From assembly GCF_017355915.2 (NCBI RefSeq), contig NZ_JAFEUV020000026.1, positions 1-35,941 of the forward strand: 35,941 nucleotides of DNA. The letters are read 5' to 3'. This document shows positions 13,756-30,930 of this stretch, piece after piece; the first letter of the stretch is position 1, and each line of letters opens with the position of its first letter. Under the pieces are notes generated by a model. The model worked only from the letters and a program-made list of their open reading frames with translations, was not told the DNA's origin and made no database searches. The stretch is from Telluribacter roseus (lineage in GTDB: Bacteria > Bacteroidota > Bacteroidia > Cytophagales > Spirosomataceae). Position numbers and translations under genes: made by a program.

Positions 13756-14901
13756 TCACTCAAAGTAATTTAGTACTTCAAAACCTTTGTTGAGCAGCAG
13801 CCTATCCTTCTGGAACAGCCTTAGATCGGCTAGGGCCATATCTTCTATAAGCGTTTCCAGCGTGTGCTTGGGCTTCCATCCCAGCTTCGCCTGTGACTTA
13901 GTCAGGTCTCCAATAAGTAGTTCTACTTCGGTTGGGCGGTAATAGCGGGGATCAATACGCATTACTACAGTACCCGCCGCTAAGTGCTCACCATAGGGGA
14001 TACCCAACTCTTCTAGTCGGTCATTATCTACGGCTACGATGGTACCTACTTCATCTTCGGCATTCCCTGTAAATTCTACGGTTACACCCAGGTAGGCGAA
14101 AGTCTTGCGAATAAATTCACGTACTCGGGTAGTCACTCCAGTCGCAATGACAAAGTCCTCTGGTCTTTCCTGTTGCAGGATCAGGTACATGGCTTCTACG
14201 TAGTCTTTGGCATGACCCCAGTCCCGCTGGGCATCAATATTGCCCATATAGAGGCAATCCTGTAAGCCTAATGCAATCTTGGCAGCAGCCCTGGTAATCT
14301 TGCGGGTTACGAATGTCTCTCCGCGCAGGGGCGATTCGTGGTTGAACAGGATGCCGTTGCAGGCGTACATTTCGTAGGCTTCGCGGTAGTTGACCGTAAT
14401 CCAGTAGGCGTACAGCTTGGCTATGGCGTAGGGGGAGCGGGGATAAAAGGGGGTCGTTTCCGATTGGGGTACCGCCTGTACTAGTCCGTATAGTTCTGAC
14501 GTAGAAGCTTGGTAAATACGGGTCTTTGTGCTGAGGCCTAGCAGCCTAACGGCCTCTAATATACGTAGTGTGCCTATACCATCCGCATTGGCGGTATATT
14601 CTGGCTCATCAAAGCTCACCTTCACGTGGCTCATGGCGGCCAGGTTATAGATCTCATCGGGTTGTACCTCCTGAATGATGCGGGTGAGGTTCATCGAGTC
14701 GGTTAGGTCGCCGTAGTGGAGGATAAAGCGCGGATCCTGCACGTGGGGGTCCTGGTAGAGGTGGTCGATGCGATCCGTATTAAACAGAGAACTACGGCGT
14801 TTTATGCCGTGGACGGTGTAGCCTTTACTAAGGAGTAATTCACTCAGATAGGCTCCGTCCTGTCCGGTTATACCTGTAATGAGGGCTACTTTGCTTTTCA
14901 T
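13756..14901 (-). CDS. gmd: GDP-mannose 4,6-dehydratase
   Basis: 381 residues, extended short-chain dehydrogenase. It converts GDP-D-mannose to GDP-4-keto-6-deoxy-D-mannose with NADP(H), the precursor of GDP-fucose, GDP-rhamnose, GDP-perosamine and others. The nucleotide-binding [10 protein letters not shown] motif is at 10-19, [11 protein letters not shown] (35-45) is the family's NADP-phosphate loop, and the catalytic set is T134/E136 with Y158-x3-K162 (SPYAIAK). Length matches the family. It is first in the minus-strand polysaccharide run and is preceded by a 555-nt gap, so the operon promoter probably lies there. No GDP-fucose synthase, RMD or perosamine synthase gene is in the window, so the final sugar cannot be told. 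Confidence 0.96.
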
Positions 14902-15456
14902 AAGTAATAAAATAGTGTGTATAGTGTGTGTATAGTTTATTGAAATTGCTGCTGGCCCTGCCTTTAAATCATTTCTGATCTACCAGCCAATGCGAGCTGT
15001 ATATTACACTATATTCATAGTAAGGCTAAATCTCACATTACTTAAATATATTGATTCATTCCTGTGCATGTAAAATGCGAGCTTCGTTATTGTACTTATA
15101 AAACAAATATAACTTTTAAAAATGTAGGCCTATTAAAAAGTTATCTAGTGGTCAAAGTATTGTGTATCTGATCAAAGAACTTTCTAAAATTTGCAATTAG
15201 GACTAATAATAAATGATTTAGACTGGAAGTCAATAGGTAGCCTTGCTTTCTGATATCACAATGCAGTACGTTAACCTTCGCATGTAACTCTTTGTTATAT
15301 AAGGTTTTTGTATAAATTTTTTAATATTTGTTATTTGATTAGTTCAGGATGTTCTACTTCTTATCATGTGTCTTTTATGTATCCTAAAACTTATTATTCA
15401 GCACCAGGATTATGCCTATTGTTTCTACTAATACTTGTTCGTCTACCCCAGAAATC
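14902..15456. other. 555-nt AT-rich intergenic region upstream of gmd
   Basis: No convincing coding frame is present. The gmd-proximal part contains a GT-repeat stretch (14921-14935). One match to the Bacteroidota -7 box lies at 15104-15111 on the minus strand. It probably carries the promoter and a leader of about 200 nt for the polysaccharide operon. A 61-codon plus-strand frame at 15308-15493 is cysteine- and hydrophobic-rich but matches nothing. Confidence 0.6.
15104..15111 (-). promoter_or_regulatory. Possible -7 promoter element for the gmd operon
   Basis: On the minus strand this reads TATATTTG, an exact match to the Bacteroidota -7 consensus TAnnTTTG. It lies about 200 nt upstream of the gmd start. 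No matching -33 TTTG was found at the usual distance, so this is a weak call from a short motif in AT-rich DNA. Confidence 0.3.
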
Positions 15457-15678: not shown

Positions 15679-16363
15679 GTATGTAGAGAAGCAACATAAA
15701 TGGCAGGAACTTACTATTACAGTTCATATAGGAAGGAACTGCTTTAAGGAAGAACATGCTGCTGTATCATAATTACTCCCTAATTGGTGAAGTTTTGATT
15801 AGAAGCAGCATCAGTTTTTTTGTAGAAGGACATAACCTGACATCTGCTAATGTTCAATATAGTCGTCGCTCAGGTTTGTAAAACGGCCTCTTCATAGGCA
15901 GAAGTATCAGTTGGATATCATCAGTAATCGCAGTGAAGTAACCGAACGCAATACTGGCGGCTATATTGCTGTGCCCACCTCAATGATCTCTGTATAGTTG
16001 GCTAGTTCTGCTTTAATTAAGTCAGCCTAGGAAGAGCAAGTAGTTATCACGACTACCTATTATTAATGTATGAGCAGCTAATGATTTATTTCACTCGGCG
16101 GGGGGGAGTTGGAAAAGGCTCCTGGTACTGAACAGAGGGATATACTGCTTGGGTGTAAATTTGCGAGAGATGCGCTATAGGAGACTGCTTACTCCTCCAG
16201 AGTAGTAGATTAGTTAAGCTTTGCCATACTATCTTGAACCTTGTAATATCTAGATTGTAATAATATGCTTCGATGATAGGGGAATGTACATTTGTTTCCT
16301 ATTCCACTACTATGATGTTAATAGTAGTGGAATAGGAAACAAAATTTATCAGAATTTTAGCCA
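15679..16363. other. 685-nt region without a recognisable gene
   Basis: All six frames are broken by stops at short intervals. A minus-strand stretch near 15960-16030 reads NYTEIIEVGTAI before a stop, which might be a scrap of a decayed gene but matches no family I know. The only clear structure is the inverted repeat at 16291-16343. Confidence 0.5.
16291..16343. terminator. Perfect 23-bp inverted repeat downstream of wzc
   Basis: Arms 16291-16313 and 16321-16343 are exactly complementary, with a 7-nt loop. It lies 20 nt past the wzc stop, where a terminator is expected. Neither strand has a clean run of T after the hairpin, so intrinsic termination is not certain; it could instead protect the 3' end of the mRNA. 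Confidence 0.6.
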
Positions 16364-18724
16364 CTAACTGACTAGCTGTTTGAGACGATGCTGCCAAGTG
16401 CGTACCTTGCTTTCTTCGCCATCGTAGTAGCCGTAGCCGTAGCCGCCGTAACCGTATCCGTATCCGTAGCCCGCCCCGTAGTTGACCCCGTTGAAGATAA
16501 CGCTCAGGTTGTTGAACCGCTTGGTGCGGCTCAGCTCGCCGATGTGGCGCAGGTGGTCGCGCAGGGTATAGTTGAAGCGCACCAGGTACAGCGTAGCGTC
16601 GGTATACTCCGCGATCAGGGCCGCGTCGGTCACCAGGCCGAAGGGGGGGCAGTCGATCAGAATGTAGTCGTACTGCTCGCGCAGCTCGGCCAGCAACTGG
16701 GGCAGGCGCCCATTGCTCAGCAACTCCGACGGATTGGGCGGGATGGGGCCACAGGTAATGACATCAAACTTGGGGTGCACGCCTGTGGGTTGGATCAACT
16801 CCGACAGCGGACTCTGCCCGATGAGGTAGTTGGTGACGCCCCGGTCGTTGGGTACCTGCAGACGCTCCTGCAGGGAGGGCTTGCGCAGGTCCATGCCGAG
16901 CAGGATCACGCGCTTATCGGCGTAGGCCAGGCTGGCGGCCAGGTTGATGCTGACGAAGCTCTTGCCCTCGCCTCCGATGGAGGAGGTAAGCATGATCGTA
17001 CGGCAGCTGCCGTCGCCTAGGTACTGCAAGTTGGTACGCAGGGCCCGGAACTGCTCGGCCACCGCCGAGCGGGAGGCCATCTTAATAATTGACTCGGGAT
17101 TATTTTCTTTCTTGAGTAGGCCGATCTCCCCCAGGATGGACACGCGGCCGATCTGCTCAATGTCGTCGCGAGTCTGGATGGTGTTGTTGAGCATGAACAG
17201 CAGGTTGATCAGCAGCAGCGGGATGGCTACGCCCGCACCGAAGGCGCCCAGCCAGATGATGGATCTCTTGGGTGCAATGGGAGCAAGAGAAGCCACAGGT
17301 GCATCCACCAGGCGGCTGTCGGTGACGGTAGAGGCGTAGGCCAGGGCGGTTTCCTCCCGCTTCTGCAGCAGGTACAGGTATAGGCCCTCCTTGATGGTTT
17401 GCTGGCGCTTGATGCCTACGTACTCGCGCTCCTTCTGCGGAATAGAGCGTAGCCCGGCCGAGAAGCGGTGGTTAACCGACTCCAGATTCTGACGGCTCAG
17501 GTCGAGGCCGCGCTTGAGGTTCTGCACGTTTTCGCGGATGGCCTGGCGGGTATTAGCCAGCTGGGTATTGACAGTTTCGAGCAGGGGGTTGCTAGCCGTG
17601 GTGGTGCGGGCGTAGCGCTCGCGCTGGATGGCCAGCTCGTTGAAGCGGGTGAGCAGCGACACCAGTACGGGATCGTTGATCATGTAGGTGGCAGGAGCTA
17701 CGGAGTTGTCGGCGTTCTGGATGTAGCTTTCGATGCTCTCCAGGATGCGGAGCTGGACGTTGACCTCGTTGAGCTTGGTGTCGTTTTCCTTGATGTTTTC
17801 CAGGAACAGCTGCGACTCGGCGCTGATGTCAGTGAGGCCCTGCTCGCGCTTGTACGACTCCACGTCACGCTCCACGTCGCCCAGCTCTCCGGTGATGAGG
17901 CCGAGGCGGTCTTCGATGAACTTGAGGGTGTTGGAGGCTTCGCGGTTCTTGTCGTTGAGCGACGACTGGATGTAGACGTCCAGCAGCTTGTTGAGTACGT
18001 CCTTGCTGCGCTGTATGGATACATCGTCGTAGGTCAGGCTCAGTACGGTACTCTTGACGTTGGGCTGCTGTACTGATAGACGGCCTTTCATGCTACCCAT
18101 TAGGGCTGCCGGGTCTTTGAAAGCTATTGTTATATCTTTGATAGAAGATGGAGTATTCTTGATTACGATGAATTCTCCCCATTTATTACGTAGCCTTCGA
18201 CCATAGGATAACAATTGATTTTCATTACCAATGCGGAATTTATCCCCTTTTTCCAGGTGGATGACCAGCGGCTCCTGGTAGGCATATTCGGTGAGTACTT
18301 TAGGCTCCACGAGGACGGGGCTCTGCTTGTAGAGGTCGCGGGTAGCCAAACCGTCTTTAGCTTGATAAACCACCTGTAGATTCAATTCGGTAATTACCTG
18401 GCTCATAAGAGTCTGAGACTTTAGGATTTCAATCTCGTTTTCAACTAGTTTATTGCCACTGAACTGAGTTAACTCCTCCAGAATTTCTCCCTGCGCCGAG
18501 CCTACACCTTTCTTTTCATCCTTAATGAGCAGGGTAGCGGTAGCCTGATAAACTGGCTGGGTGATCTGCAAATAAAAAAAGGCAGCGGTAATCGTAAGAC
18601 ACACAAATAGAGGAAACAGGTACCAGTAACGCAGGTAGCGATGGAGATACTCTTGTAAGTTGAACTCCTGCTCTTCGGGCTGGGCATGTTCTACAGGTAT
18701 AGCAAAATGTGTGCGATCATTCAT
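16364..18724 (-). CDS. wzc: Polysaccharide co-polymerase / BY-kinase (Wzc-like)
   Basis: 786 residues. Inner-membrane protein that controls chain length and export by tyrosine autophosphorylation. The Wzz domain is bounded by TM1 (about 34-52) and TM2 (about 489-511), with a long periplasmic coiled-coil region (about 265-465). The cytoplasmic kinase has Walker A SIGGEGKS (582-589, K588), Walker A' VILLGMDLRKP (607-617, D612) and Walker B YILIDCPP (687-694, D691). The tail holds nine tyrosines between 749 and 767 alternating with glycine, the autophosphorylation cluster. It is 81 nt downstream of wza. Base composition is uneven: codons for roughly the first 215 residues are AT-richer than the rest, and the change near 18075 is sharp, which suggests a mosaic gene. 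Confidence 0.95.
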   Translation of the reverse strand: MNDRTHFAIPVEHAQPEEQEFNLQEYLHRYLRYWYLFPLFVCLTITAAFFYLQITQPVYQATATLLIKDEKKGVGSAQGEILEELTQFSGNKLVENEIEILKSQTLMSQVITELNLQVVYQAKDGLATRDLYKQSPVLVEPKVLTEYAYQEPLVIHLEKGDKFRIGNENQLLSYGRRLRNKWGEFIVIKNTPSSIKDITIAFKDPAALMGSMKGRLSVQQPNVKSTVLSLTYDDVSIQRSKDVLNKLLDVYIQSSLNDKNREASNTLKFIEDRLGLITGELGDVERDVESYKREQGLTDISAESQLFLENIKENDTKLNEVNVQLRILESIESYIQNADNSVAPATYMINDPVLVSLLTRFNELAIQRERYARTTTASNPLLETVNTQLANTRQAIRENVQNLKRGLDLSRQNLESVNHRFSAGLRSIPQKEREYVGIKRQQTIKEGLYLYLLQKREETALAYASTVTDSRLVDAPVASLAPIAPKRSIIWLGAFGAGVAIPLLLINLLFMLNNTIQTRDDIEQIGRVSILGEIGLLKKENNPESIIKMASRSAVAEQFRALRTNLQYLGDGSCRTIMLTSSIGGEGKSFVSINLAASLAYADKRVILLGMDLRKPSLQERLQVPNDRGVTNYLIGQSPLSELIQPTGVHPKFDVITCGPIPPNPSELLSNGRLPQLLAELREQYDYILIDCPPFGLVTDAALIAEYTDATLYLVRFNYTLRDHLRHIGELSRTKRFNNLSVIFNGVNYGAGYGYGYGYGGYGYGYYDGEESKVRTWQHRLKQLVS

Positions 18725-18805
18725 AGCATAATGAGTTGGTGTGGATATACTTAGGAATACATATTTTTCTTGGCAGAAAAATTACATCATTTGGGTGATG
18801 CAACG

Positions 18806-19627
18806 TCAGAGCCTGACAAAATTAAAGATCAGGACAGTGACAGTGGTGATGGTACTAAGTACCAGAGGCAGTACCTGCATGGTGCGGTCGGTGGAGGTCA
18901 GACGGGCATTGACCGGCTCCACGTAGATCACGTCGTTCTTGTGCAGGTAGTAGTAGGGCGAACGGAAAATATCGCGGCTGGTAAAGTCCACCCGGGCGTA
19001 CTCGCGCTTGCCGTCTTCCTCGCGGATGATGAGCACGTTGTCGCGCTTGCCGTAGATGGTCATGTCACCGGCCAGGCTCAGCACTTCGGGCAGGGTGATC
19101 TTCTCGTCGGGTATCACGTAGACGGCCGGACGGTTGACCTCCCCCATGACGGATACCTTGAAGTTGAGCGTGCGGATGCTGACAGTGGGCTCACGCAGGT
19201 AGGCCATCAGGCGCTTGCGTACGGTATCAGATGCTGCCCAGGCGGGCATTCCCAGCAGGTTGATCTTACCCACCAGGGGCATCTCCACATTTCCTTCATG
19301 ATCCACCAGATAGCCAATGGTTTGGGAGCGCGATCCTCCACCGGTGGTGGCATAGTTCATGTTGGCGACGGTGAACTGGTTGGGCATGTTGAAGAGCTCG
19401 TTGGACTCGGCACTAAGGCTACCGACATAGATGGAGAGCAGGTCGTTGGGTTGGATAGTGGGTACGTAGTTCTGGGTGATGCTGTCGGAGGTGTAGCGCA
19501 GTTCTTCTCCCTGAAAGTAGACGACGGTCTTGGGAGATACACACGAGCTAAGGCCGCCCAAACTCAGAGCTACAATAAGTGCTAAGAACGAATAGAAACG
19601 TTTTAATCTGGCTAAAGGTAACATCAT
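18806..19627 (-). CDS. wza: Polysaccharide export lipoprotein (Wza-like)
   Basis: 273 residues. Outer-membrane export component with a Poly_export domain followed by SLBB-like sequence. A lipoprotein signal is clear: basic start, hydrophobic 11-25, lipobox GLSSC with C29. The poly-export domain covers about 53-150 (IQPNDLLSIYV, 58-68; GYLVDHEGNVEMPLVGKINL, 105-124). The SLBB part, with KVSVMGEVNRPAVYVI (157-172), follows. The C-terminus is a hydrophobic stretch (LPLVLSTITTVTVLIFNF, 253-270), as in Bacteroidota Wza. Two ATGs are adjacent (19627 and 19624); either could start. It precedes wzc, and the upstream region has four 20-bp direct repeats (19794 onward), so transcription is probably activator controlled. 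Confidence 0.94.
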   Translation of the reverse strand: MMLPLARLKRFYSFLALIVALSLGGLSSCVSPKTVVYFQGEELRYTSDSITQNYVPTIQPNDLLSIYVGSLSAESNELFNMPNQFTVANMNYATTGGGSRSQTIGYLVDHEGNVEMPLVGKINLLGMPAWAASDTVRKRLMAYLREPTVSIRTLNFKVSVMGEVNRPAVYVIPDEKITLPEVLSLAGDMTIYGKRDNVLIIREEDGKREYARVDFTSRDIFRSPYYYLHKNDVIYVEPVNARLTSTDRTMQVLPLVLSTITTVTVLIFNFVRL

Positions 19628-20091
19628 GAGGATACTGTCGCTTATAAGAAATGAATGGATTGCTGAAATGGAATGTAAAACTTAGGTAGATTTCATGGGA
19701 TAGATCGGAGGGCTCTTTTCAATATTCCATAGGACGTATTGAATATATAACAACGGTTATGCAAGTATAAGGAAAGGTATTTTAGTTTGATCTACCACTT
19801 GATAATATGACCTACCACTTGATAATTCTTAAGACCATTTAATAATAAGACATACCGTTTACTCACAATCAATGAACATGTACAACTAAAAAATATAATT
19901 TTATATATACCGCACATCAATTCTTATTCGCCTCCTCGCTAAAGCAAGTTTATAATCAGAATCAGATATATACCTGCCTATTCCAACGCTACTGATTGTC
20001 AGATAACAGGAGCGACATCCGGTTGTAACACTTTTACTTCTAAGACCCCGTTAAAGTTTGTTTTATATACCATCACTAATTTGTTTGATTT
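19628..20091. other. 464-nt divergent intergenic region between wza and the methyltransferase gene
   Basis: No coding frame. It holds a four-copy direct repeat array (19794-19873) and presumably the promoters of both divergent genes. A one-mismatch -7 box for wza is present at 19762-19769 (minus strand TATACTTG), about 25 nt from the array. No good promoter was recognised for the plus-strand gene. Confidence 0.6.
19794..19873 (+). promoter_or_regulatory. Four 20-bp direct repeats, LytTR-like operator array
   Basis: ACC cores start at 19794, 19814, 19834 and 19854, an exact 20-bp period. The core reads ACCACTTGATAAT twice, then ACCATTTAATAAT, then ACCGTTTACTCAC. The pattern of direct repeats about two helical turns apart, with an ACCRTTTA-like core, resembles sites of LytTR-domain response regulators (AgrA/ComE class). 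Seen: the repeat and its period. Inferred: the protein that binds it. It starts 167 nt upstream of the wza start codon. Confidence 0.6.
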
Positions 20092-20976
20092 ATGATTGAT
20101 CTACAAATCAAGTCAGCTCTCTCGGAATTTTTATTACCAGGTGTTGAATTGAAGAAATCCGGAAGCTATCTGGAGCATCCAATCTCCTGCTTGTCAGAAG
20201 CCATCAAGGCAAATGCCTACTACTTTGGTAATGCGGAATGGGCAGAGGAATATCTTACATACTGCCACCGGGATGAGAGTTTTAGGAGCAGATGGCTGGC
20301 CGCTGGCGGCGATTGGACAGATAAGGTAGTAGTGGATATTGGCTGTGGGCCAGGCAATCTAATGGCTACTTTAAAAGGAAAGCCTAAAATTGTAATTGGC
20401 GTGGATGTGGCTCCTACATCCTTAGAATTTGCGGCAAAACTTGGTTATGTTCCGGTACTTGCTGATGCGCATAAGCTTCCCTTCCAATCCGGATTTGCGG
20501 ATATCGTGGCCCTGAATGCCGCTTTACACCATTGTGAGAATATGGCTGCTGTTCTTAAAGAAGCCGCTCGTTTGGTAAAGCCCGGAGGCATTCTTATCAC
20601 AGATCATGACCCACAACACTCCGCCTGGAACTACAAGGGGCTGGCCAAACTCCTGTGGAATGGCAGACTTGTTTACTACCGGCTCATTGGACATAGCTTT
20701 CATAAGTCAGGCAATCAGCAAAGTTGGGCCCTGGCTTCCGAAATACACCATAAGCCCGGACATGGTGTTACCAACGAAATGTTCATGAAAGTGTTAAAGC
20801 CACTAGGGTTTGAGGTTAGCGTCTATCCTCATAATCATGTGCTGGGGGCCGAGATCATGCAGGGGAATGTAGGTAGGGCCGCTTTCAAATACCGGCTGGG
20901 TAACTTGTTATCGGGACGTCATCCTGATGCTAAAACAAGTGCTTTAAGTCTGATGTGTGTTGCCAGAAAGAAGTAA
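20092..20976 (+). CDS. Class I SAM-dependent methyltransferase
   Basis: 294 residues, the only plus-strand gene supported here. Motif I VVDIGCGPGN is at 80-89, with an acidic residue at the end of strand two (IGVDVAP, D105). ADAHKLPF (124-131), LNAALHH (141-147) and LVKPGGILITDHDP (161-174) follow the UbiE/Methyltransf_11 pattern. The C-terminal third is specific to this protein and would hold the acceptor site. There is no signal peptide, so it is cytoplasmic. It could methylate a polysaccharide sugar or lipid carrier given its place next to wza, but nothing in the sequence fixes the substrate. It ends 87 nt before a shared bidirectional terminator. Confidence 0.88.
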   Translation: MIDLQIKSALSEFLLPGVELKKSGSYLEHPISCLSEAIKANAYYFGNAEWAEEYLTYCHRDESFRSRWLAAGGDWTDKVVVDIGCGPGNLMATLKGKPKIVIGVDVAPTSLEFAAKLGYVPVLADAHKLPFQSGFADIVALNAALHHCENMAAVLKEAARLVKPGGILITDHDPQHSAWNYKGLAKLLWNGRLVYYRLIGHSFHKSGNQQSWALASEIHHKPGHGVTNEMFMKVLKPLGFEVSVYPHNHVLGAEIMQGNVGRAAFKYRLGNLLSGRHPDAKTSALSLMCVARKK

Positions 20977-21133: not shown

Positions 21134-24100
21134 TCATCGTACAATAAGTAGCTTGTGCGAAGAAACTTTACCGTATTGCTTTACCTGTATGATGTAGGTT
21201 CCGGGACTCATGCCATCAACAGCTATTCGCACGCTACCTGAGGCTATTACCTCGTATTTGGGATAATGCACTAGTACACCATTCGTAATTCCAAGGTTAA
21301 AGTCATCGGCTTCTGGATAAACTCCGTCAATCGTAACAACATCAGCTGTTGGGTTCGGGTATAGAGTAATTTTCGGTGTTCTCTCAACAGTGGTTTCGGT
21401 ACTTGCACTAACTCTTGCCGCGGAAGTATTTGTGATCTTGAAGGTGATGGAAAAGGGAGTACCGGCCGTACCCGTAGCACTTCTTTCAGTGTAAGGGGTA
21501 CCTGTTAGTCGGTAATCCCCCACCGCCGGTGTCCAGGCGTTATAGTTGCCTGCCTCGTCTCCGAACAGCGAGTAGGGGAAGCCCGTCTCTATCTGGGTCC
21601 GGCTCTGCTGACCACTGAGGATCATCTTTACACTGCCCACCCGGTCAGGATTGGTGTTGGCGCGGATGCTCAGGTTGCGGGTCGGTAAACTGGCCAGATC
21701 AAGTACATCACCAGCTGTCAGCTCCCGGATGGGCTGCTCGTTATCAGCATTCATCAACGTGAAGCTTACTACCTGCTGGCCGGCTGGCGCAGGAGCCGGA
21801 GTAGTCTCAGCCTGCTCTACCACTTTGAAGGTGATGGAAAGGGGAGTACCGGCCGTACCCGTAGCACTTCTTTCAGTGTAAGGGGTACCTGTTAGTCGGT
21901 AATCCCCCACGGCCGGTGTCCAGGCGTTGTAGTTGCCTGCCTCGTCGCCGAATAGGGAATAAGGAAAGCCCGTCTCTGTCTGAGTCCGGTTCTCCTGGCC
22001 ACTGAGGATCATCTTTACACTGCCCACCCGGTCAGGATTGGTGTTGGCACGGATGCTCAGGTTCTTTGTAGGGAGTGTAGCCAGGTTCAGCACGTCATTA
22101 GCTGTCAGCTCCCGGATGGGCTGCTCGTTGTCAGCATTCATCAACGTGAAGCTTACTACCTGCTGGGTGGAAGTGGCAGGCTCAGGATTGACCTTTACCG
22201 AAGCATCGTTCGTAGCGGTGGCTCCCTGATTATCTTTTACCGTCAGACGGAAGACATACGTACCCGCAACCAGATTACCAGCTGTCAGGTTGGCCGTGCC
22301 GACATTGGACAGGCTGGCCTGGCTGGGACCGCTCTGCTGGTTCCATTGGTAGGAGGCAATGCTGCCGTCGGAGTCGCTGCCCGAGCCGTTGAGGATTACG
22401 CTGTTGGTGGGAAGTGCAATGGTCTTATCTGCACCGGCATTGGCCGTAGGCGCCTGATTGCTGGCTACTACCTCTCCGGTACATGTAGTCTCTGGGTTGG
22501 TCAGGGCCAGCGCCGTGGTGGTTGAGACTGATGAGTGGTGCATCACCAGGCGGTCGATCAGGTGCCCGTCCGAGCGAGCCGAGATCTGGATCCTGTAGAC
22601 TCCCGGCGAGTTGAACTCAGCCACGATCAGCAGGTTTTCGTGGTCACTGGTAACAGTAGCCCAGTTCCATTTGAGCCCCCCGTTGGTGAAGATCTTGAAC
22701 CAGCCACCTGAACCAGCTCCTTTAGGATTGGGTGTTTTACCACTACCATGCGGATAAACAACGTATGTGCCTTTCTCGGCATAGAAGTTACTGGCGTCAG
22801 GCAGGCGCAGCCAGGAGTCGTTGTGCTCGCTGCCGGAGGTACCTTTGCCGACTCTGTTATGCCAGCGGAAGTAGTACTTGCCTGTCTTGTTGATTTTGAC
22901 GGTAGTCTCGATCAGACCTACGCCTGGCTTGGAGAAGCTTGACGCACCGGTCCACTCAATGTAGCCGCTGCCGGTGTAGCCACTGGTGGCGCTTTTTTTC
23001 TGCCAGCCCGAGGGCAGGTTCAGGTTCTCGGCTTCGATGACTACCAGGCCATTGCGCTCTTCATGAGGAGCATCACAGGTCATTAAAGCTGCTGTTGTTC
23101 TTGCCGCGGAAGTATTTGTGATCTTGAAGGTGATGGAAAAGGGAGTACCGGCCGTACCCGTAGCACTTCTTTCAGTGTAAGGAGTACCTGTTAGTCGGTA
23201 ATCCCCCACCGCCGGTGTCCAGGCGTTATAGTTGCCTGCCTCGTCTCCGAACAGCGAGTAGGGGAAGCCCGTCTCTATCTGGGTCCGGCTCTGCTGACCA
23301 CTGAGGATCATCTTTACACTGCCCACCCGGTCAGGATTGGTGTTGGCGCGGATGCTCAGGTTGCGGGTCGGTAAACTGGCCAGATCAAGTACATCACCAG
23401 CTGTCAGCTCCCGGATGGGCTGCTCGTTATCAGCATTCATCAACGTGAAGCTTACTACCTGCTGGCCGGCTGGCGCAGGAGCCGGAGTAGTCTCAGCCTG
23501 CTCTACCACTTTGAAGGTGATGGAAAGGGGAGTACCGGCCGTACCCGTAGCACTTCTTTCAGTGTAAGGGGTACCTGTTAGTCGGTAATCCCCCACGGCC
23601 GGTGTCCAGGCGTTGTAGTTGCCTGCCTCGTCGCCGAATAGGGAATAAGGAAAGCCCGTCTCTGTCTGAGTCCGGTTCTCCTGGCCACTGAGGATCATCT
23701 TTACACTGCCCACCCGGTCAGGATTGGTGTTGGCACGGATGCTCAGGTTCTTTGTAGGGAGTGTAGCCAGGTTCAGCACGTCATTAGCTGTCAGCTCCCG
23801 GATGGGCTGCTCGTTGTCAGCATTCATCAACGTGAAGCTTACTACCTGCTGGGTGGAAGTGGCAGGCTCAGGATTGACCTTTACCGAAGCATCGTTCGTA
23901 GCGGTGGCTCCCTGATTATCTTTTACCGTCAGACGGAAGACATACGTACCCGCAACCAGATTACCAGCTGTCAGGTTGGCCGTGCCGACATTGGACAGGC
24001 TGGCCTGGCTGGGACCGCTCTGCTGGTTCCATTGGTAGGAGGCAATGCTGCCGTCGGAGTCGCTGCCCGAGCCGTTGAGGATTACGCTGTTGGTGGGAAG

Positions 24101-24883
24101 TGCAATGGTCTTATCTGCACCGGCATTGGCCGTAGGCGCCTGATTGCTGGCTACTACCTCTCCGGTACATGTAGTCTCTGGGTTGGTCAGGGCCAGCGCC
24201 GTGGTGGTTGAGACTGATGAGTGGTGCATCACCAGGCGGTCGATCAGGTGCCCGTCCGAGCGAGCCGAGATCTGGATCCTGTAGACTCCCGGCGAGTTGA
24301 ACTCAGCCACGATCAGCAGGTTTTCGTGGTCACTGGTAACAGTAGCCCAGTTCCATTTGAGCCCCCCGTTGGTGAAGATCTTGAACCAGCCACCTGAACC
24401 AGCTCCTTTAGGATTGGGTGTTTTACCACTACCATGCGGATAAACAACGTATGTGCCTTTCTCGGCATAGAAGTTACTGGCGTCAGGCAGGCGCAGCCAG
24501 GAGTCGTTGTGCTCGCTGCCGGAGGTACCTTTGCCGACTCTGTTATGCCAGCGGAAGTAGTACTTGCCTGTCTTGTTGATTTTGACGGTAGTCTCGATCA
24601 GACCTACGCCTGGCTTGGAGAAGCTTGACGCACCGGTCCACTCAATGTAGCCGCTGCCGGTGTAGCCACTGGTGGCGCTTTTTTTCTGCCAGCCCGAGGG
24701 CAGGTTCAGGTTCTCGGCTTCGATGACTACCAGGCCATTGCGCTCTTCATGAGGAGCATCACAGGTCATTAAAGCTGCTGTTGTTATACCTCCTGCATGC
24801 ATATCAGGGGATAGTGTCAGCAGCGGAATGGAGCAGCAAGCTAACAGATAAGAGTGTTTAACTCTTTGTAAAAAATTCAACAT
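21134..24883 (-). CDS. Secreted modular carbohydrate-binding protein with internal 562-residue duplication, T9SS substrate
   Basis: 1,249 residues. Signal peptide 1-30 (cut after MHA). Residues 34-595 and 596-1157 are two copies of the same block, encoded by a 1,686-bp tandem duplication in which one silent base difference was noticed. Each block has a jelly-roll carbohydrate-binding-like domain (first copy about 40-240; GLVVIEAENLNLPSGWQ, SGYIEWTG, HNDSWLRLPDASNFY), a PKD-like domain (about 247-337) and two INADxxQPIR modules (about 346-460 and 475-588). Residues about 1170-1249 are a T9SS type-A sorting domain (ITLYPNPTADVV to KLLIVR). No catalytic domain was recognised. It is probably a cell-surface or matrix protein that binds glycan; the ligand is unknown. 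A strong terminator lies 27 nt beyond the stop. Confidence 0.9.
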   Translation of the reverse strand: MLNFLQRVKHSYLLACCSIPLLTLSPDMHAGGITTAALMTCDAPHEERNGLVVIEAENLNLPSGWQKKSATSGYTGSGYIEWTGASSFSKPGVGLIETTVKINKTGKYYFRWHNRVGKGTSGSEHNDSWLRLPDASNFYAEKGTYVVYPHGSGKTPNPKGAGSGGWFKIFTNGGLKWNWATVTSDHENLLIVAEFNSPGVYRIQISARSDGHLIDRLVMHHSSVSTTTALALTNPETTCTGEVVASNQAPTANAGADKTIALPTNSVILNGSGSDSDGSIASYQWNQQSGPSQASLSNVGTANLTAGNLVAGTYVFRLTVKDNQGATATNDASVKVNPEPATSTQQVVSFTLMNADNEQPIRELTANDVLNLATLPTKNLSIRANTNPDRVGSVKMILSGQENRTQTETGFPYSLFGDEAGNYNAWTPAVGDYRLTGTPYTERSATGTAGTPLSITFKVVEQAETTPAPAPAGQQVVSFTLMNADNEQPIRELTAGDVLDLASLPTRNLSIRANTNPDRVGSVKMILSGQQSRTQIETGFPYSLFGDEAGNYNAWTPAVGDYRLTGTPYTERSATGTAGTPFSITFKITNTSAARTTAALMTCDAPHEERNGLVVIEAENLNLPSGWQKKSATSGYTGSGYIEWTGASSFSKPGVGLIETTVKINKTGKYYFRWHNRVGKGTSGSEHNDSWLRLPDASNFYAEKGTYVVYPHGSGKTPNPKGAGSGGWFKIFTNGGLKWNWATVTSDHENLLIVAEFNSPGVYRIQISARSDGHLIDRLVMHHSSVSTTTALALTNPETTCTGEVVASNQAPTANAGADKTIALPTNSVILNGSGSDSDGSIASYQWNQQSGPSQASLSNVGTANLTAGNLVAGTYVFRLTVKDNQGATATNDASVKVNPEPATSTQQVVSFTLMNADNEQPIRELTANDVLNLATLPTKNLSIRANTNPDRVGSVKMILSGQENRTQTETGFPYSLFGDEAGNYNAWTPAVGDYRLTGTPYTERSATGTAGTPLSITFKVVEQAETTPAPAPAGQQVVSFTLMNADNEQPIRELTAGDVLDLASLPTRNLSIRANTNPDRVGSVKMILSGQQSRTQIETGFPYSLFGDEAGNYNAWTPAVGDYRLTGTPYTERSATGTAGTPFSITFKITNTSAARVSASTETTVERTPKITLYPNPTADVVTIDGVYPEADDFNLGITNGVLVHYPKYEVIASGSVRIAVDGMSPGTYIIQVKQYGKVSSHKLLIVR
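21413..24784 (-). repeat. Tandem direct duplication, two units of 1,686 bp
   Basis: Units 21413-23098 and 23099-24784. Bases flanking the units diverge at once (21412 vs 23098; 23100 vs 24786), so the edges are sharp. One difference was noticed, g at 21497 against a at 23183, and it is silent. The period is an exact multiple of three (562 codons), keeping the frame open. Confidence 0.95.
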
Positions 24884-25212
24884 AATCCAGTTTATAAGAA
24901 TAAAAGGTACAATTGATTTGATCCATTGGATTAATCAATAGTGTGTGTGATAGGCACATAGGTTCGTTGGCTATACCAAAAAGTATAGTCGTAAACTCAG
25001 TGGCAATACCTGTAAGTTTTAGCTTTTATAGTGGGGTTATATCCTGGACTAGTGTCTGACTTGTCACTTTTGGTGATGGTCATTAGTCCGTATTCTACTA
25101 AATGTTCTAATAGTCACCAGCAGAATATACATAGTGTGTAGTAGTGGTAAAAAATGGAATTTAAACCATTGGTAAAACGAACAATTGAGACGATGAGTAC
25201 CAGATGTTGCTT

Positions 25213-25252
25213 ACCGTTAGATGTAATTCTCTTTGCTAAATAAATAAATAAA
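25213..25252 (+). promoter_or_regulatory. 20-bp-spaced repeat pair, putative regulator site
   Basis: ACCGTTAGAT at 25213 and TTTGCTAAAT at 25233. They align with the pair at 30511/30531, including the shared ATTCTCT spacer and following AAATAAATAAA. The second copy has lost the ACC. Distance to the start codon is 330 nt, close to the 336 nt at the paralogous gene. Confidence 0.45.
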
Positions 25253-25365
25253 GGTGGGAGTCAAGAGGTTCATTTAGTAAAAAGTCCGGATAAGTGTTAT
25301 TTTATTAGATACGTCATAAATTTTGATAGAAAAGTCAAATATCGATATTTAAAATACCTCATTAA

Positions 25366-25380
25366 TTGACTGTAAATCAA
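25366..25380. promoter_or_regulatory. TTGACT-N3-AATCAA dyad
   Basis: TTGACTGTAAATCAA, preceded by ATTAA. Same motif as 34156-34170 with one change in the right arm. It is 133 nt from the nearest 20-bp repeat. Confidence 0.45.
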
Positions 25381-25527
25381 CAGGTTCGTGCGTGTTGCCT
25401 AACGGTCAATTACGATAATGAGAAGATATTTGATCGGCTGTGTCAGGTTACAAATGGGAGGTGGGAAGGTAAGCACAAAGTATGAGTTAGATAACCTTTT
25501 AGTCTATGAGTATTTGTTAGAATATTC

Positions 25528-25590
25528 TATAGTACCTAATTGAGAAAAAGCCTGCTATCATAGCAGGCTTTTTCTCAATTAGGTACTATA
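25528..25590. terminator. Terminator hairpin with 30-bp perfect stem
   Basis: Arms 25528-25557 and 25561-25590, 3-nt loop TCA. The core GCCTGCTA/TAGCAGGC is flanked by A5/T5. It lies 17 nt beyond the stop of the 1,522-residue protein gene. Confidence 0.9.
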
Positions 25591-25606
25591 AAACGGAATA
25601 AGGGTG

Positions 25607-28600
25607 TTACTCAGCCTTGATCAGCTTATAGGTTTTTAATTTTCTACCAGCTCCTATGTGTAGTATGTACATACCCGGTGCTACCTCTTTCCCTAGGGTG
25701 ATAGTCTGTTCGGCTTGTAGATCTTCCAGTTGCATCACTACCCGCCCATTGACATCAAAGAGAATAGCTGGTAGCTTACCACTTCCTTTCCCTTGCACCT
25801 GCAGGGTGATGGTTTCGGCGAATGGATTAGGATAGTACTTCACCTGTAGGCCCTCAGGTTCTGACAAACTCTCAAAGCTAATTCTAGCTGCAGATGTATT
25901 TGTAATCTTGAAGCTGATGGAGAGGGGAGTACCGGCCGTACCCGTAGCACCTCTTTCGGTGTAGGGTGTACCTGTTAGTCGGTAATCCCCCACCGCCGGT
26001 GTCCAAGCGTTATAGTTGCCTCCTTCGTCTCCGAACAGCGAGTAGGGGAAGCCAGTCTCTATCTGAGTCCGGCTCTGCTGACCACTGAGGACCATCTTTA
26101 CACTGCCCACCCGGTCAGGATTGGTGTTGGCGCGGATGCTCAGGTTACGGGTCGGTAAACTGGCCAGATCAAGTACATCACTAGCTGTCAGCTCCCGGAT
26201 GGGCTGCTCGTTATCGGCATTCATTAACGTGAAGCTTACTACGGCACCGGCATCCTCCACGGTTCGGGAAGCTGATGCATAATTCAGCGCTACTATTTCA
26301 AGGGCGGATACCTTGGGGTTATTTTCAGATCCTTTTTTGAAATCGATATTCAGAGTACCATCATTAACGTTTACATCAAAGGACTCCTGAATAGCTTTGA
26401 GAGGGCCGCCGGCTTTGGCAGCGATATCATATTCTGATAGTTTTCGTTGCCCCTCTACATCAACGTTGAACTTCCGCGTGCCAGAGCCTTTAACTCCCAG
26501 GTAAGTTTCAGCAAAGTGCAAAATCACTCTGTAGTTGCCGTTATTCACAGGGAAGTTATAGGAGAAATTACCATAGCGTTCGGTCCGGTATAGAGGATCG
26601 TCGTTGGTATTTATAATATCAGCATTACCAGCATTATAGGTGTTTCCACTACTGTGATGGGCATCCGCGATAAATTGTTTTTCATCGGAAGTGATATAGC
26701 TGCTTCCTCCCGCATTTATTCGGTATACTACCACCGGATTAACCTCAGGCTCATCTATTACACTGAAGTTAATGGACAGTGCAGCTCCTGAGGAACCGGT
26801 AGCACCGGGACCGGTATAAGGAGTAGCCGTCAGAGTATAATCTCCTAGTGATGGTGTCCAGGCGTTGTAGTCACCATCTTTATCGCCAGTCAATGCATAG
26901 GGGAAATCTGTTTCAGTCCGAACATTAGTTTCCTTCCCATTGAGCACAAACTTTACACTTCCTACACGAGTGGGATCTGAATTGGCACGGATGTTCAGGT
27001 TCCTGGTTGGTAGTGTTGTCAGGTTTAGTACATCATTAGCTGTCAGCTCACGTATCGGCTGATCTGTATCAGCATTGATAAGTGTGAAACTTGCTACTGA
27101 TTCAGCTAGAGAAGGGTCAGGATTTACTCTTACTGAGACTTCATCATGTGCAGTGGCACCCTGATTATCTGTTACTGTCAGGCGGAATACATAGCTACCA
27201 ACAATTAATTCACTTGCGGTAAGGCTGGCGGAACTCGCGTCGTTTAGCTTTGCTTGGCTAGGGCCACTCTGTTGACTCCATTCATAGGAAGCGATACTAC
27301 CGTCATGATCACTGGCCGAACCCGTCAGAGTGATACTGGAGGTAGGATGGGTAATAGTTTTATCTTCGCCGGCATCGGCACTTGGCGCCTGGTTCGCAGC
27401 AGGCTTTACGGTAACGACTGTTTCATCGAATACTGTTGCACCCTGGTTGTCGGTCACCGTCAGGCGGAAGACGTAGGTACCCGCTACCAGATTACTAGCA
27501 GTCAGCGAGGATGTGTTAGCTCCGTTTAGGTTAGCTGTGTTAGGGCCACTCTGCTGACTCCACTCATAGGAAGCGATACTACCATCATGATCACTGGCCG
27601 AACCCGTCAGAGTAATACTATTGGTAGGTAAGGTGATAGCCTTATCCGAGCCGGCGCTAACTGTAGGAGACTGATTCGATGAACTACCTACAACATCAAA
27701 ACTAATGGTAAGAGAAGCCCCTGCGGTACCCTTAGCATCTTCGCCAGTATAGGGAGTAGAAGTGATTACATAGCTGCCCTGATCTGGCGTCCAGGCATTG
27801 TAATTACCATTTTTATCACCAAACAATGAGTACGGAGAACCGGTTTCTATTTGAGTCTTTCTTTGCTTTCCACTTAGTACAAATTTAACGCTACCTACTG
27901 TAGATGGATCAGTATTAGCACGAATGTTCAGGTTTCTGGTCGGTAGGGTAGATAAGTCAAGAACATCCTTATCTGCTAAGTCGCGGATTGGCTGCTCGTT
28001 GTCAGCATTGATCAGAGTTAAGGTTACTACACGCTGATCAGCCACTACCTTAACAGCTACATCATCATAATCGGAGGCACCCTGGTTGTCTTTCACCGTC
28101 AGGCGGAAGACGTACGTACCAGCTACTAGTTCACTGGCGGTTAATTGGGCGGTGTTGACTCCACTTAATTTAGCTGTGTTAGGGCCGCTTTGCTGACTCC
28201 ACTGCCAGGAGGCAATGCTGCCATCAGAGTCACTGGCTGTGCCATTTAATGTAACGCTGCTAGCTGGCAGAGTAATGTTCTGATCAACTCCTGCATTAGA
28301 AGTTGGGGGCTTATTAACAGTTGTTTGGGAGTTTCTCTGAACCAGTACAACCCAATCCTCACTTGACTCGGCTGGTGGATTTCCCAACGGTTTGGAACCA
28401 TTACCTACAAAAGAAGTAACTGATCCGTTCTGTAGAGCACCTGTACGCGGATTGTACCACTTTACTGTATAGGTTGCATTGGTATTGATGGTAATATTGG
28501 CAGTGCCTCCGGCTTTAAGATACACAACATACACATGTCCATCTTTACCTAGCATAATCCCTTTGCTAACATTAGTCAGTAGAGTTACTTCACCCATTGG

Positions 28601-30175
28601 CACGTAGGTACGAAAGAAGTTCAGGGCATGTCTGGTATAGCGCCACATCTTAGCACGTGAGCGGAAATCCTGAGCGGTGAGGTCAGTCTCGCCAGTGTTG
28701 TATCCAAAGTAGTACTCTACGCCGGCTCCCAAAGCCATGATATTTCCCCAGAGTGCGTTTTTTCTTATATCATTTTGGTTATCAGCTATGGTTCCTCTGT
28801 TCCCCGGGTAATCTTCATCAGCTGCTACACCTTTTTCTCCAGGCGTTTGTTCATCATTAGCTACTACCCATTTTTTTCCGGCTTTGGCAGATTGCTCTAC
28901 CCATTTTTTTGTTTCCTGGTATACACTTCCTACGGCTACTTGAAGTGCAGCGCCTGTATATTTAGAGCTATTGCCTAACAAAGGGGTGTATACTTCATCC
29001 TGCTCTCCGGGGTATGTATGAATAACGACATGATGCTTGTAGGGGTCATTGCGGGAGAAGTACTCTGCCATGTCTTTGCGCTGCTGTGTGGCTTGTTGGT
29101 TCTCCTCCCCCATGTTCCAGTTCAGAGCCAGGTGGTGACCGAAGCGCGCGATCAGCTCCCGGTAGTAGAGCTTGCGCAGAGTGCCCAGGTCTCCTCCGTC
29201 CAGCATTCTGTCGTTTTCCTTTTCCTGAAACTTAAAGTTCATGTACATGCCTTTGGTGTCGGCATGCTCAAACACCTTCTCCCACTGCTCGAGCTTGGAG
29301 CAGTCAAAGCGGGTGTAGTCGCTGGTATTCAGGTAAGGGTATACATTTCGGTCATCCCCGTTGATGTTCATGGTCAGGAAGGAGAAGGCATTGAGCCCCT
29401 GACCGGACAGATAGTTGATGGCGCCGATGATGCCCTTGCCCTTGCCGTCCTTCCAGGTCGGATCACCCGACTGCCAGTCCTGCAGGTGAGGGCGGTATGT
29501 TTTCCTTCTACTACCATTATTAGGAGTATTATCAAAGTCTTCGTAGGCCAGGAAGTTCTCGGGAGAGTCTACCCCTCCCTTGAGGAAGTACTCGCCCGTC
29601 TCGGCAAACTGCAGGTAGTGCTGTCCTACGTAGCGCAGGCGGCCTTTGCCCCTAAGGTCCACTCCTCCCTTATCAGTAGGGGCAATGGTGAAGGAGCCGC
29701 TCTGGCCATCCACCGGACTGACGGCACTGCCGGCATTCGGATCTTCGCTCACGGCAAGGTCAGGTCCTGTTCTCATGGATACAGAGTAGGTCCAGGTGCC
29801 TACTTCATCGGGGGCGAAGTGCACCTTCCACACGTTACCGGCCGAAGCGCTGGTCTGGGCAGCATTACCATCGGCGGCAAAGTAGCCGGGCACCAGGTAG
29901 GATTTGGAGCCGTTGGAGAAGGTGACGTTGAGGCGGTAGTTGAGGAATGGGTTGTCGGAAGCGGTTTCAGAGGAAGCCGGTCCGTCGATGAGCAGCGTGA
30001 TCTTGTGCCATTTTTTTAGCTCCCCCTGTACGGTCACCTGGCCGGTGCCATTGTTGACAAGGGTGGGAAAGGGTATACCAGCGGCCTTTCCGGTTGTAGG
30101 TAATACTACTAGTAGAATCAAAAAATGAACTAACAGCTTGATCTGTTTAGCCTTTCTTACTACATACTCCTCCAT
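25607..30175 (-). CDS. Secreted DUF5060/GH-like glycoside hydrolase with PKD, malectin and T9SS sorting domains
   Basis: 1,522 residues. Signal peptide about 1-32. A DUF5060-type N-terminal domain (about 44-165; WHKITLLIDGP) leads into a TIM-barrel of the DUF4038/GH140-like group (about 180-525). NWNMGEEN (352-359) gives E357 or E358 as likely acid/base and VVANDEQ (437-443) gives E442 as likely nucleophile. A collagen-binding-like beta domain follows (about 528-613). Then PKD (621-711), INAD module (716-828), two PKDs (about 834-1018), INAD module (1027-1140), malectin domain (about 1149-1297, YRINAGGSSYITSD) and a third INAD module (1312-1424). Residues 1447-1522 form the T9SS sorting domain. 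Probably cleaves an extracellular polysaccharide; substrate unknown. Confidence 0.9.
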   Translation of the reverse strand: MEEYVVRKAKQIKLLVHFLILLVVLPTTGKAAGIPFPTLVNNGTGQVTVQGELKKWHKITLLIDGPASSETASDNPFLNYRLNVTFSNGSKSYLVPGYFAADGNAAQTSASAGNVWKVHFAPDEVGTWTYSVSMRTGPDLAVSEDPNAGSAVSPVDGQSGSFTIAPTDKGGVDLRGKGRLRYVGQHYLQFAETGEYFLKGGVDSPENFLAYEDFDNTPNNGSRRKTYRPHLQDWQSGDPTWKDGKGKGIIGAINYLSGQGLNAFSFLTMNINGDDRNVYPYLNTSDYTRFDCSKLEQWEKVFEHADTKGMYMNFKFQEKENDRMLDGGDLGTLRKLYYRELIARFGHHLALNWNMGEENQQATQQRKDMAEYFSRNDPYKHHVVIHTYPGEQDEVYTPLLGNSSKYTGAALQVAVGSVYQETKKWVEQSAKAGKKWVVANDEQTPGEKGVAADEDYPGNRGTIADNQNDIRKNALWGNIMALGAGVEYYFGYNTGETDLTAQDFRSRAKMWRYTRHALNFFRTYVPMGEVTLLTNVSKGIMLGKDGHVYVVYLKAGGTANITINTNATYTVKWYNPRTGALQNGSVTSFVGNGSKPLGNPPAESSEDWVVLVQRNSQTTVNKPPTSNAGVDQNITLPASSVTLNGTASDSDGSIASWQWSQQSGPNTAKLSGVNTAQLTASELVAGTYVFRLTVKDNQGASDYDDVAVKVVADQRVVTLTLINADNEQPIRDLADKDVLDLSTLPTRNLNIRANTDPSTVGSVKFVLSGKQRKTQIETGSPYSLFGDKNGNYNAWTPDQGSYVITSTPYTGEDAKGTAGASLTISFDVVGSSSNQSPTVSAGSDKAITLPTNSITLTGSASDHDGSIASYEWSQQSGPNTANLNGANTSSLTASNLVAGTYVFRLTVTDNQGATVFDETVVTVKPAANQAPSADAGEDKTITHPTSSITLTGSASDHDGSIASYEWSQQSGPSQAKLNDASSASLTASELIVGSYVFRLTVTDNQGATAHDEVSVRVNPDPSLAESVASFTLINADTDQPIRELTANDVLNLTTLPTRNLNIRANSDPTRVGSVKFVLNGKETNVRTETDFPYALTGDKDGDYNAWTPSLGDYTLTATPYTGPGATGSSGAALSINFSVIDEPEVNPVVVYRINAGGSSYITSDEKQFIADAHHSSGNTYNAGNADIINTNDDPLYRTERYGNFSYNFPVNNGNYRVILHFAETYLGVKGSGTRKFNVDVEGQRKLSEYDIAAKAGGPLKAIQESFDVNVNDGTLNIDFKKGSENNPKVSALEIVALNYASASRTVEDAGAVVSFTLMNADNEQPIRELTASDVLDLASLPTRNLSIRANTNPDRVGSVKMVLSGQQSRTQIETGFPYSLFGDEGGNYNAWTPAVGDYRLTGTPYTERGATGTAGTPLSISFKITNTSAARISFESLSEPEGLQVKYYPNPFAETITLQVQGKGSGKLPAILFDVNGRVVMQLEDLQAEQTITLGKEVAPGMYILHIGAGRKLKTYKLIKAE

Positions 30176-30510
30176 TTCAGATGATTTAAAATATAAAAAA
30201 CGATTGATTTAATTCATTCAGTTAAATATTAATGTGTGAGATGGGTATGGATATAGTTTTCTTATCTGGGTAGTGGTGTCCTATCCATTATTTTAAATTT
30301 AATTCATGTAAGACATTTTAGCAGGTATTGACAACAGTGGTCAATCATGCCTGCTTTTATCAAAGATGCAAGTATTTAGTCCGCATAGGGTATTGACTTG
30401 TAGTCTTTAACGATATTGTGTCAATCAATTTCCGGAATAAACTACCTGCGTAAAGAGGGATCTGTCTTGACGGGTTAGATAGGGTCGAGCAGTACAATAA
30501 AATGTTACGT

Positions 30511-30550
30511 ACCGATAAATAAAATTCTCTACCGCTAAATAAATAAATGA
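30511..30550 (+). promoter_or_regulatory. 20-bp-spaced repeat pair, putative regulator site
   Basis: ACCGATAAAT at 30511 and ACCGCTAAAT at 30531, exactly 20 bp apart, 336 nt upstream of the start codon. It is the clearest pair among the three secreted-protein genes and matches the core of the wza array. Confidence 0.5.
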
Positions 30551-30667
30551 AAGTTGAAGGGGTGAAATATAATTTAGTAAACGGTCATAAAGTATAAAAA
30601 TTTAGTAAATATGTTATAATAAAAGTCATTAAATTCATATAGTTATGTAAATGTGAAAATCGCCTAA

Positions 30668-30682
30668 TTGACTAATAGTCAA
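30668..30682. promoter_or_regulatory. Perfect TTGACT-N3-AGTCAA dyad
   Basis: TTGACTAATAGTCAA, six-base arms with no mismatch, preceded by CTAA. It is 137 nt from the nearest 20-bp repeat, on the side away from the start codon. Confidence 0.5.
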
Positions 30683-30930
30683 CACATAAAATAGCGATTC
30701 TAGGCATATTTTATCAAATATCATACCATAGTGAAAGAGTCATGGAGAATATAAAATGAATTATTTTGTAACTGATTGTATAGCTAAATACTTTCGTAGT
30801 AGGCTTATTAATTATTACAATAATATTACTATTGGTTACAAATTTGATTTTAGAAAAAAGTAAAGTTATGTATTTACCACGCTGGAATTCGATAGTAACT
30901 GGTAGTATATTTACTAGTAACTAGTAGTAA

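What the first reader, a model, noticed from the sequence alone, without database searches (positions are those of the whole stretch)
19794..19873. Four direct repeats with an exact 20-bp period upstream of wza-wzc
ACC cores fall at 19794, 19814, 19834 and 19854. The first two units share a 13-base core (ACCACTTGATAAT) and the others keep ACC-R/Y-TTT-A. A 20-bp period puts all sites on one face of the helix. The form resembles LytTR-domain regulator sites, but four copies are more than the usual two. It would place polysaccharide export under a dedicated, possibly cooperative, regulator.
Basis: partly seen in the sequence, partly recalled or inferred. Interest (0 to 1): 0.72.

Follow-up and report, generated by a model that had tools for sequence, protein, structure and literature searches.

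The report
Four-copy LytTR-type operator before wza
Four regularly spaced copies of a regulator-binding sequence lie in front of a sugar-polymer export gene of a soil bacterium, a sister species keeps the same arrangement, and single copies lie before dozens of other genes, so the array looks like the densest docking site of a wide gene-control network.

Summary
The array is real: units at 19794, 19814, 19834 and 19854, exact 20-bp period, beyond chance (0 of 1000 shuffles for three or four units). The one other genome of the genus held, Telluribacter humicola, has four units at the same period before wza in the matching gene order. No such pair was found in wza-homologue loci of 28 other genera (at least one lacks upstream DNA).

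The units match published LytTR half-sites: a matrix built only from the literature finds this array and no other triple in the window. The unit is one form of a motif found 50 and 47 times in the two Telluribacter genomes (controls 7 and 14). 82 of 95 scanned copies are intergenic, 68 of 73 non-array copies read towards the next gene, and promoter -7 boxes lie at preferred distances, supported on held-out genera.

Best reading: a cooperative LytTR/AlgR-like operator at the wza promoter. 'Dedicated regulator' is not supported. The array is reversed relative to most copies, so it may drive the divergent methyltransferase gene instead. The regulator among 33 LytTR proteins is unknown; binding and function are inferred.

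The parts
19794..19806 (+). unit 1, ACCACTTGATAAT
19814..19826 (+). unit 2, ACCACTTGATAAT
19834..19846 (+). unit 3, ACCATTTAATAAT
19854..19866 (+). unit 4, weak, ACCGTTTACTCAC
19762..19769 (-). candidate -7 box of wza, TATACTTG (5 of 6 to TAnnTTTG); T. humicola has TAAACTTG at the same distance of 25 from the array
   Evidence: chosen after the fact, other 5-of-6 matches exist nearby
18806..19627 (-). wza (Poly_export, SLBB), likely target
16364..18724 (-). wzc (Wzz, GNVR, AAA_31)
15141..15153 (-). single copy GACCACTAGATAA before GDP-mannose dehydratase, conserved in T. humicola
15104..15111 (-). -7 box TATATTTG, 41 nt after ACC of that copy, conserved
13756..14901 (-). GDP-mannose 4,6-dehydratase gene
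19896..19903 (+). possible -7 box TAATTTTA towards the methyltransferase gene, 42 nt after ACC of unit 4; no clear counterpart in T. humicola
   Evidence: read by eye
20092..20976 (+). SAM-methyltransferase gene, rival target

Best explanation
The four repeats are a homotypic operator for a LytTR-domain transcription factor. Each 9-base ACCNNTTNN core would bind one LytTR domain; with 11-bp spacers the four domains sit nearly on one face of the helix and can bind cooperatively. The array lies just upstream of the likely wza promoter (-7 box 25 nt away) and most likely serves as an activator site for export of the polysaccharide whose genes follow, together with the single copy before GDP-mannose dehydratase. 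It is the densest known site of a genome-wide motif. Shown by computation: the array, its period, its presence in both genomes of the genus, the match to published LytTR half-sites, the genome-wide motif, its position and orientation before genes, and preferred distances to -7 boxes. Inferred: that a LytTR protein binds, that it activates, that wza is the target, and cooperativity.
For: (1) Matrix from 43 published LytTR half-sites: 8, 8, 21 and 24 of 71,866 window 9-mers score at least as high as units 1-4; the only triples at periods 19-22 start at 19794 and 19814. (2) Four units at the same period before wza in T. humicola, in the same order array-wza-wzc-dehydratase. (3) KACCRYTDGMTAA: 50 hits against 7 for the reversed control in the own genome, 47 against 14 in T. 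humicola; 82 of 95 scanned sites intergenic; 68 of 73 non-array sites read towards a right-hand gene on the same strand. (4) Held-out genera: 36 near-matches to the -7 box over 66 positions in 27 flanks, 12 in 9 preset offsets (4.9 expected), 7 of them at offset 51. (5) With spacers free from 4 to 30, all 7 tandem hits in 222 family genomes have period 20 or 21; one of the 2 outside the genus lies between two LytTR genes. (6) AlgR, a LytTR regulator of alginate, binds single asymmetric CCGTTCGTC/CCGTTTGTC sites, one reversed at -45 of algD, and algC-ABS1 works reversed (PMC4064291 passages); the canonical form here is ACCGTTNGATAA. (7) -7-like box at the same distance from the array in both species.
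Against: The units read away from wza, unlike 68 of 73 other copies. None of the 33 own LytTR genes has a clear self-site; the best near-copy (L209) lies inside the neighbouring upstream gene. LytTR genes lie in 1 of 83 motif loci of the genus, no more than a rough chance estimate, against 4 of 30 (3 independent) in other genera and 0 of 29 wza loci. G139, with the pair between two LytTR genes, has 65 LytTR domains and a third close by, so chance adjacency is not negligible; the other non-genus pair (L197, before recA) has its first unit inside the end of a gene. Order-wide, the short pair ACCGTTNGA at period 20-21 is not above control: 6 hits in 5 of 390 genomes against 9 control hits. The canonical form ACCGTTTGA ranks 165 and the dehydratase form 529 on the literature matrix. 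The two published Bacteroides operons have 11-base repeats unlike these. Most copies are single; the average signal for a second copy at +21 is weak (z 2.2, lower than at 42, 23 and 33). The array is absent outside the genus.
Confidence: 0.58

Rival explanations
1. Same LytTR-type operator, but its output is the divergent + strand methyltransferase gene; wza merely lies next to it.
For: Units read towards that gene, as 68 of 73 other copies do; a 5-of-6 -7 box lies 42 nt after unit 4, a preferred offset.
Against: T. humicola keeps four near-perfect units although no + strand ORF over 60 aa lies in the roughly 700 bp to the right and no methyltransferase homologue was found in that 12-kb locus (the rest of its genome was not searched); no clear -7 box on that side there.
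Confidence: 0.17
2. Same operator, but a repressor site that blocks the wza promoter, as CoxC does at PcoxB.
For: The array edge lies about where a -33 element would sit, 25 nt from the -7 box; CoxC represses from three repeats over the -35 box (PMC11347149, passages).
Against: At the other copies the motif lies upstream, at activator-like distances of about 41 and 51 nt before the -7 box.
Confidence: 0.1
3. Operator of another regulator class that binds asymmetric direct repeats, such as an AraC-family protein.
For: AraC-type sites can be asymmetric repeats about 21 bp apart (recalled); an AraC-family gene lies to the right of the array in T. humicola.
Against: Its own-genome counterpart (86% identity) is on contig C7, away from the arrays on C26 and C14; the match to LytTR half-sites.
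Confidence: 0.1
4. Chance or recent local duplication of DNA without regulatory meaning.
For: The array is limited to one genus.
Against: Shuffles, kept in both species while the flanks differ, genome-wide motif.
Confidence: 0.05

Closest known systems
AlgR sites at algD and algC, Pseudomonas aeruginosa (PMC4064291, passages seen)
   Same: LytTR regulator; asymmetric CCGTTNG core; several sites at exopolysaccharide promoters; single sites; a reversed site at -45 of algD; algC-ABS1 works reversed.
   Different: Scattered sites, no 20-bp array; tail GTC rather than ATAA; other phylum; regulator here not identified.
LytTR Regulatory Systems, HdrR, BrsR and relatives (PMC6193735, passages and tables seen)
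   Same: Half-sites such as ACCACTTAC, ACCACTTGC, ACCACTTAT with 11-13 bp spacers; here ACCACTTGA with 11.
   Different: Two repeats, autoregulating an operon with a membrane inhibitor; here four repeats, no LytTR gene in the window, no evident membrane partner beside five small LytTR genes.
RcoM1 and CoxC operators (PMC11347149, passages seen)
   Same: More than two direct repeats for a LytTR protein, 12-13 bp spacers.
   Different: Three repeats, other motif (TTCNNGCA, TTNNNGCN); CoxC is a repressor.
AgrA sites of Staphylococcus aureus (PMC4227749, passages seen)
   Same: LytTR activator on direct repeats, promoter-proximal ones centred near -60.
   Different: Two repeats; other targets and motif.

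Membership tests
LytTR-type operator | 9-bp half-sites fitting published LytTR half-sites | tested here: met
   matrix of 43 of the 50 half-sites seen; met for the array units, weaker for the canonical single form (rank 165) and the dehydratase form (rank 529)
LytTR-type operator | direct repeats with 10-13 bp spacers | tested here: met
   11-bp spacers; range from PMC11347149 and PMC6193735 passages
LytTR-type operator | link of the motif to LytTR genes | tested here: inconclusive
   pair between two LytTR genes in G139; 4 of 30 loci in g47/g4/g39, 1 of 83 in the genus, 0 of 29 wza loci
LytTR-type operator | repeats upstream of a promoter and read towards it | tested here: inconclusive
   68 of 73 single copies yes; array upstream of wza but reversed
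LytTR-type operator | bound by a LytTR protein | not testable with these tools
   needs EMSA or footprinting
LytTR Regulatory System (LRS) | LytTR gene with membrane-inhibitor gene, autoregulated by the repeats | tested here: not met
   no LytTR gene in the window; no clear self-site before 33 LytTR genes; no evident partner beside five small ones, by a crude hydropathy count
AraC-type operator | conserved linkage to an AraC gene | tested here: not met
   adjacent in T. humicola; own counterpart unlinked on C7

The most novel reading that the evidence does not exclude
Telluribacter and some relatives run an AlgR-like LytTR regulon built on single asymmetric sites at helically phased distances from -7 boxes; at wza the site has been multiplied into a reversed four-copy cluster that makes polysaccharide export a switch-like output. 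It would be the first defined LytTR motif with a regulon in this order, as far as the searches in one open library show.
Probability: 0.38. Interest if true: 0.62.

Novelty: new variant of a known kind. Interest (0 to 1): 0.5.

Why it matters
The two Telluribacter genomes carry 33 and 35 LytTR domains and some relatives up to 74, yet the literature searches here listed no defined binding site for them in this group. A motif with target lists in two species, conserved promoters and one four-copy site makes direct bench tests possible, and would tie polysaccharide export to the control of surface and secreted proteins.

Tried and rejected
Named-genome scan with the tandem pattern: one T. humicola record and one 7.8-kb Flavobacteriales contig, the latter not followed. 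Tandem pattern with up to 2 mismatches in 222 family genomes: 14 hits outside the genus, all with 2 mismatches, against 10 control hits; read as chance. Order-wide short pairs: 6 hits against 9 control hits, so no excess; besides L197 and L198 the cases (L219, L222, and L220/L223 from one genome) hold no LytTR gene. Sigma-70-like sites over the units: 3 found, 3.5 expected. Literature matrix over all 49 wza-type loci fetched: 12 listed pairs, 4 of them Telluribacter arrays; the other 8 rows (one a duplicate locus) are not at matching places I could interpret, the best (L057) lies in a short simple repeat. Second half-site beside single copies: weak at +21; single cases L129, L169, L181. Self-sites before own LytTR genes: none clear. 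Naming the regulator by likeness to the L198 proteins: best own hits 31-39% identity, none unique. BldC-like head-to-tail binding (PMC5859096 passages): its 9-bp repeats do not fit a 20-bp period. Counts: the 95 sites are 97 hits less the two at the second wza-wzc loci (L054, L057), which I had not put into that scan; 'intergenic' means outside ORFs of 100 aa or more, sites overlapping a gene's end counted as intergenic. Offsets (6 of 7 exact boxes) were chosen, so only one search is a test; it used 30 of the 79 sites listed, not filtered for coding, 34 flanks reduced to 27. Pfam was run on 30 of 71 downstream-ORF entries, chosen with preference for orthologous pairs; 15 of 30 had a match. The chance estimate for LytTR neighbours (about 1.4 of 83 and 0.75 of 30) is my arithmetic from the counts, not a tool result.

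Full report
OBSERVATION. The four repeats exist as described. On the + strand ACC starts at 19794, 19814, 19834 and 19854; the first two units agree over 13 bases, the third differs by two, the fourth is weak beyond ACC-N-TT. In the 464-bp gap, dinucleotide shuffles with 13-base windows reached the score of two units in 3 of 1000, and of three or four units in 0 of 1000; with 9-base windows 6 of 1000 (three) and 1 of 1000 (four).

SURROUNDINGS. The window is one whole contig (C26) of a 6.3-Mb genome. Left of the array, on the minus strand, lie wza, wzc, a GDP-mannose dehydratase gene and a run of glycosyltransferase and related genes. Right of it, on the plus strand, is a SAM-methyltransferase gene (20092-20976), then minus-strand genes for proteins with PKD repeats and type IX secretion tails.

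CONSERVATION. T. humicola has four units (TACCACTTGATAAT twice, TACCACTTGCTAAT twice) at exact 20-bp period before a wza gene followed by wzc and GDP-mannose dehydratase. This wza is the counterpart by gene order; by sequence it is 78% identical to the window wza, while a second T. humicola copy on C18, without an array, is 84% identical. In wza-homologue loci of 28 other genera no such pair was seen; in at least one of them (L038) the contig ends before the upstream region. In 222 family genomes the strict tandem pattern with at most one mismatch occurs only in the two Telluribacter genomes. The own genome has another tandem pair at C14:3600 before a run of glycosyltransferase genes that ends in a sugar transferase, and a looser pair at C14:382 before a GT61 gene. 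The own wza paralogue on C25 (95% identity) has no array upstream, but it and the T. humicola C18 copy both have a canonical single copy between wza and wzc.

A GENOME-WIDE MOTIF. KACCRYTDGMTAA has 50 hits in the own genome against 7 for the reversed control, and 47 against 14 in T. humicola. Of 95 scanned sites 82 are intergenic. Of 73 non-array intergenic sites, 68 have the right-hand gene on the same strand. The core extends to [TG]ACC[GA][TC]TNG[AC]TAAAATT (positions named in the search pattern are fixed by it, the last four letters are not). KACCGTTNGATAAWW has 24 against 1 and 25 against 0 in the two Telluribacter genomes, 9 against 0 in G004, 5-10 against 0-2 in each of 13 genomes of genus g47, and 22 against 2 over 8 genomes of g39; elsewhere counts are low and I did not total them. 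Ten pairs of orthologous downstream genes have a copy in both species, among them GDP-mannose dehydratase, a glycosyltransferase, a PhyH-family protein and a DUF4412 protein. Among 30 downstream proteins scanned, 15 had a Pfam match, including CotH, PKD and Ig-like proteins, a DNA/RNA non-specific endonuclease, thioredoxin-like proteins and fructose-bisphosphatase.

PROMOTER POSITION. Flavobacterial promoters have a -7 box TAnnTTTG (PMC9723704, passages). In 60 de-duplicated Telluribacter flanks 6 of 7 exact boxes lie at offsets 33, 34, 41, 42, 52 and 53 from ACC, but these offsets were picked. On held-out sites of g47, g4 and g39, 27 flanks hold 36 near-matches over 66 positions; 12 lie in the nine preset offsets (4.9 expected), 7 of them at offset 51. 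This places the motif where activators sit. Before GDP-mannose dehydratase, GACCACTAGATAA and TATATTTG about 41 nt later are conserved in both species. Before wza, TATACTTG and in T. humicola TAAACTTG lie 25 nt from the array edge; other 5-of-6 matches exist nearby, so this is a choice, not a mapped start.

WHICH REGULATOR. Published LytTR half-sites include ACCACTTAC, ACCACTTGC and ACCACTTAT with 11-13 bp spacers (PMC6193735). With a matrix of 43 of the 50 half-sites seen there, 8, 8, 21 and 24 of 71,866 window 9-mers score at least as high as units 1 to 4, and there is no other triple at periods 19-22. The canonical single form resembles AlgR sites CCGTTCGTC and CCGTTTGTC (PMC4064291) but ranks 165 on that matrix, and the dehydratase form 529. 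With spacers free from 4 to 30, the seven tandem hits in the family all have period 20 or 21; in G139 such a pair lies between a 146-aa LytTR gene and a GAF-LytTR gene. Against this, order-wide the short 20-21 bp pair is no commoner than its control (6 against 9 hits), the other non-genus pair (L197) overlaps a gene end, and LytTR genes lie in only 1 of 83 motif loci of the genus, against 4 of 30 (3 independent) in g47/g4/g39 and 0 of 29 wza loci. The link is good for the form of the sites and moderate at best for neighbourhood. No own LytTR gene stands out.

DIRECTION. The units read away from wza; this is the main weakness of the wza reading. In its favour: T. humicola keeps the array although no + strand ORF over 60 aa lies within about 700 bp on the other side, the -7-like box on the wza side keeps its distance, and AlgR sites can work reversed.

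VERDICT. A real operator-like array of LytTR form, present in both genomes of the genus, and the densest site of a genome-wide motif. Its kind is known; four copies at an exact 20-bp period and a defined LytTR-type motif with many targets in this order are new as far as the listed searches show. Binding, activation, target and cooperativity are inferred. After checking, confidence was lowered slightly (0.60 to 0.58; novel case 0.40 to 0.38) because the order-wide control showed no excess.

Noticed in passing
G000 and G001 genome-wide; window 15141-15153 (-): The motif KACCRYTDGMTAA occurs about 50 times per Telluribacter genome, mostly intergenic, and looks like the mark of a whole regulon.
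   Followed up: partly
L054 1230 (-), L057 12225 (+): The second wza-wzc locus of both species has a canonical copy ACCGTT[TA]GATAA between wza and wzc instead of an array before wza.
   Followed up: partly
window 17562-19560 against L054: The window wza is 95% identical to the own C25 paralogue and 99% over the first 160 bp compared, more alike than to either T. humicola copy; recent duplication or gene conversion is possible.
   Followed up: no
L055 382-414 and 3600-3632 (contig C14): Two further pairs at 20 bp lie before glycosyltransferase genes; a transposase-like HTH gene lies beside the second.
   Followed up: partly
G180:C1:1042668 and 1042749, counterparts in G181 and G184: Two outward-facing copies about 80 bp apart recur in three species of genus g47.
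   Followed up: no
L247: In G181 (genus g47) a copy TACCGTTTGATAAAT lies 109 nt before an ORF that starts like GDP-mannose dehydratase (judged by eye).
   Followed up: no
window 25529-25590: Long inverted repeat with A and T runs, like a two-way terminator, beside a gene with a type IX secretion tail.
   Followed up: no
window 16294-16340: Strong inverted repeat just after wzc, followed by about 1.4 kb with no ORF of 90 aa or more before GDP-mannose dehydratase.
   Followed up: no
window 21134-35901: Four large proteins in a row with K319L-like PKD repeats and Por_Secre_tail domains, one with a malectin domain, adjoin the polysaccharide cluster.
   Followed up: no
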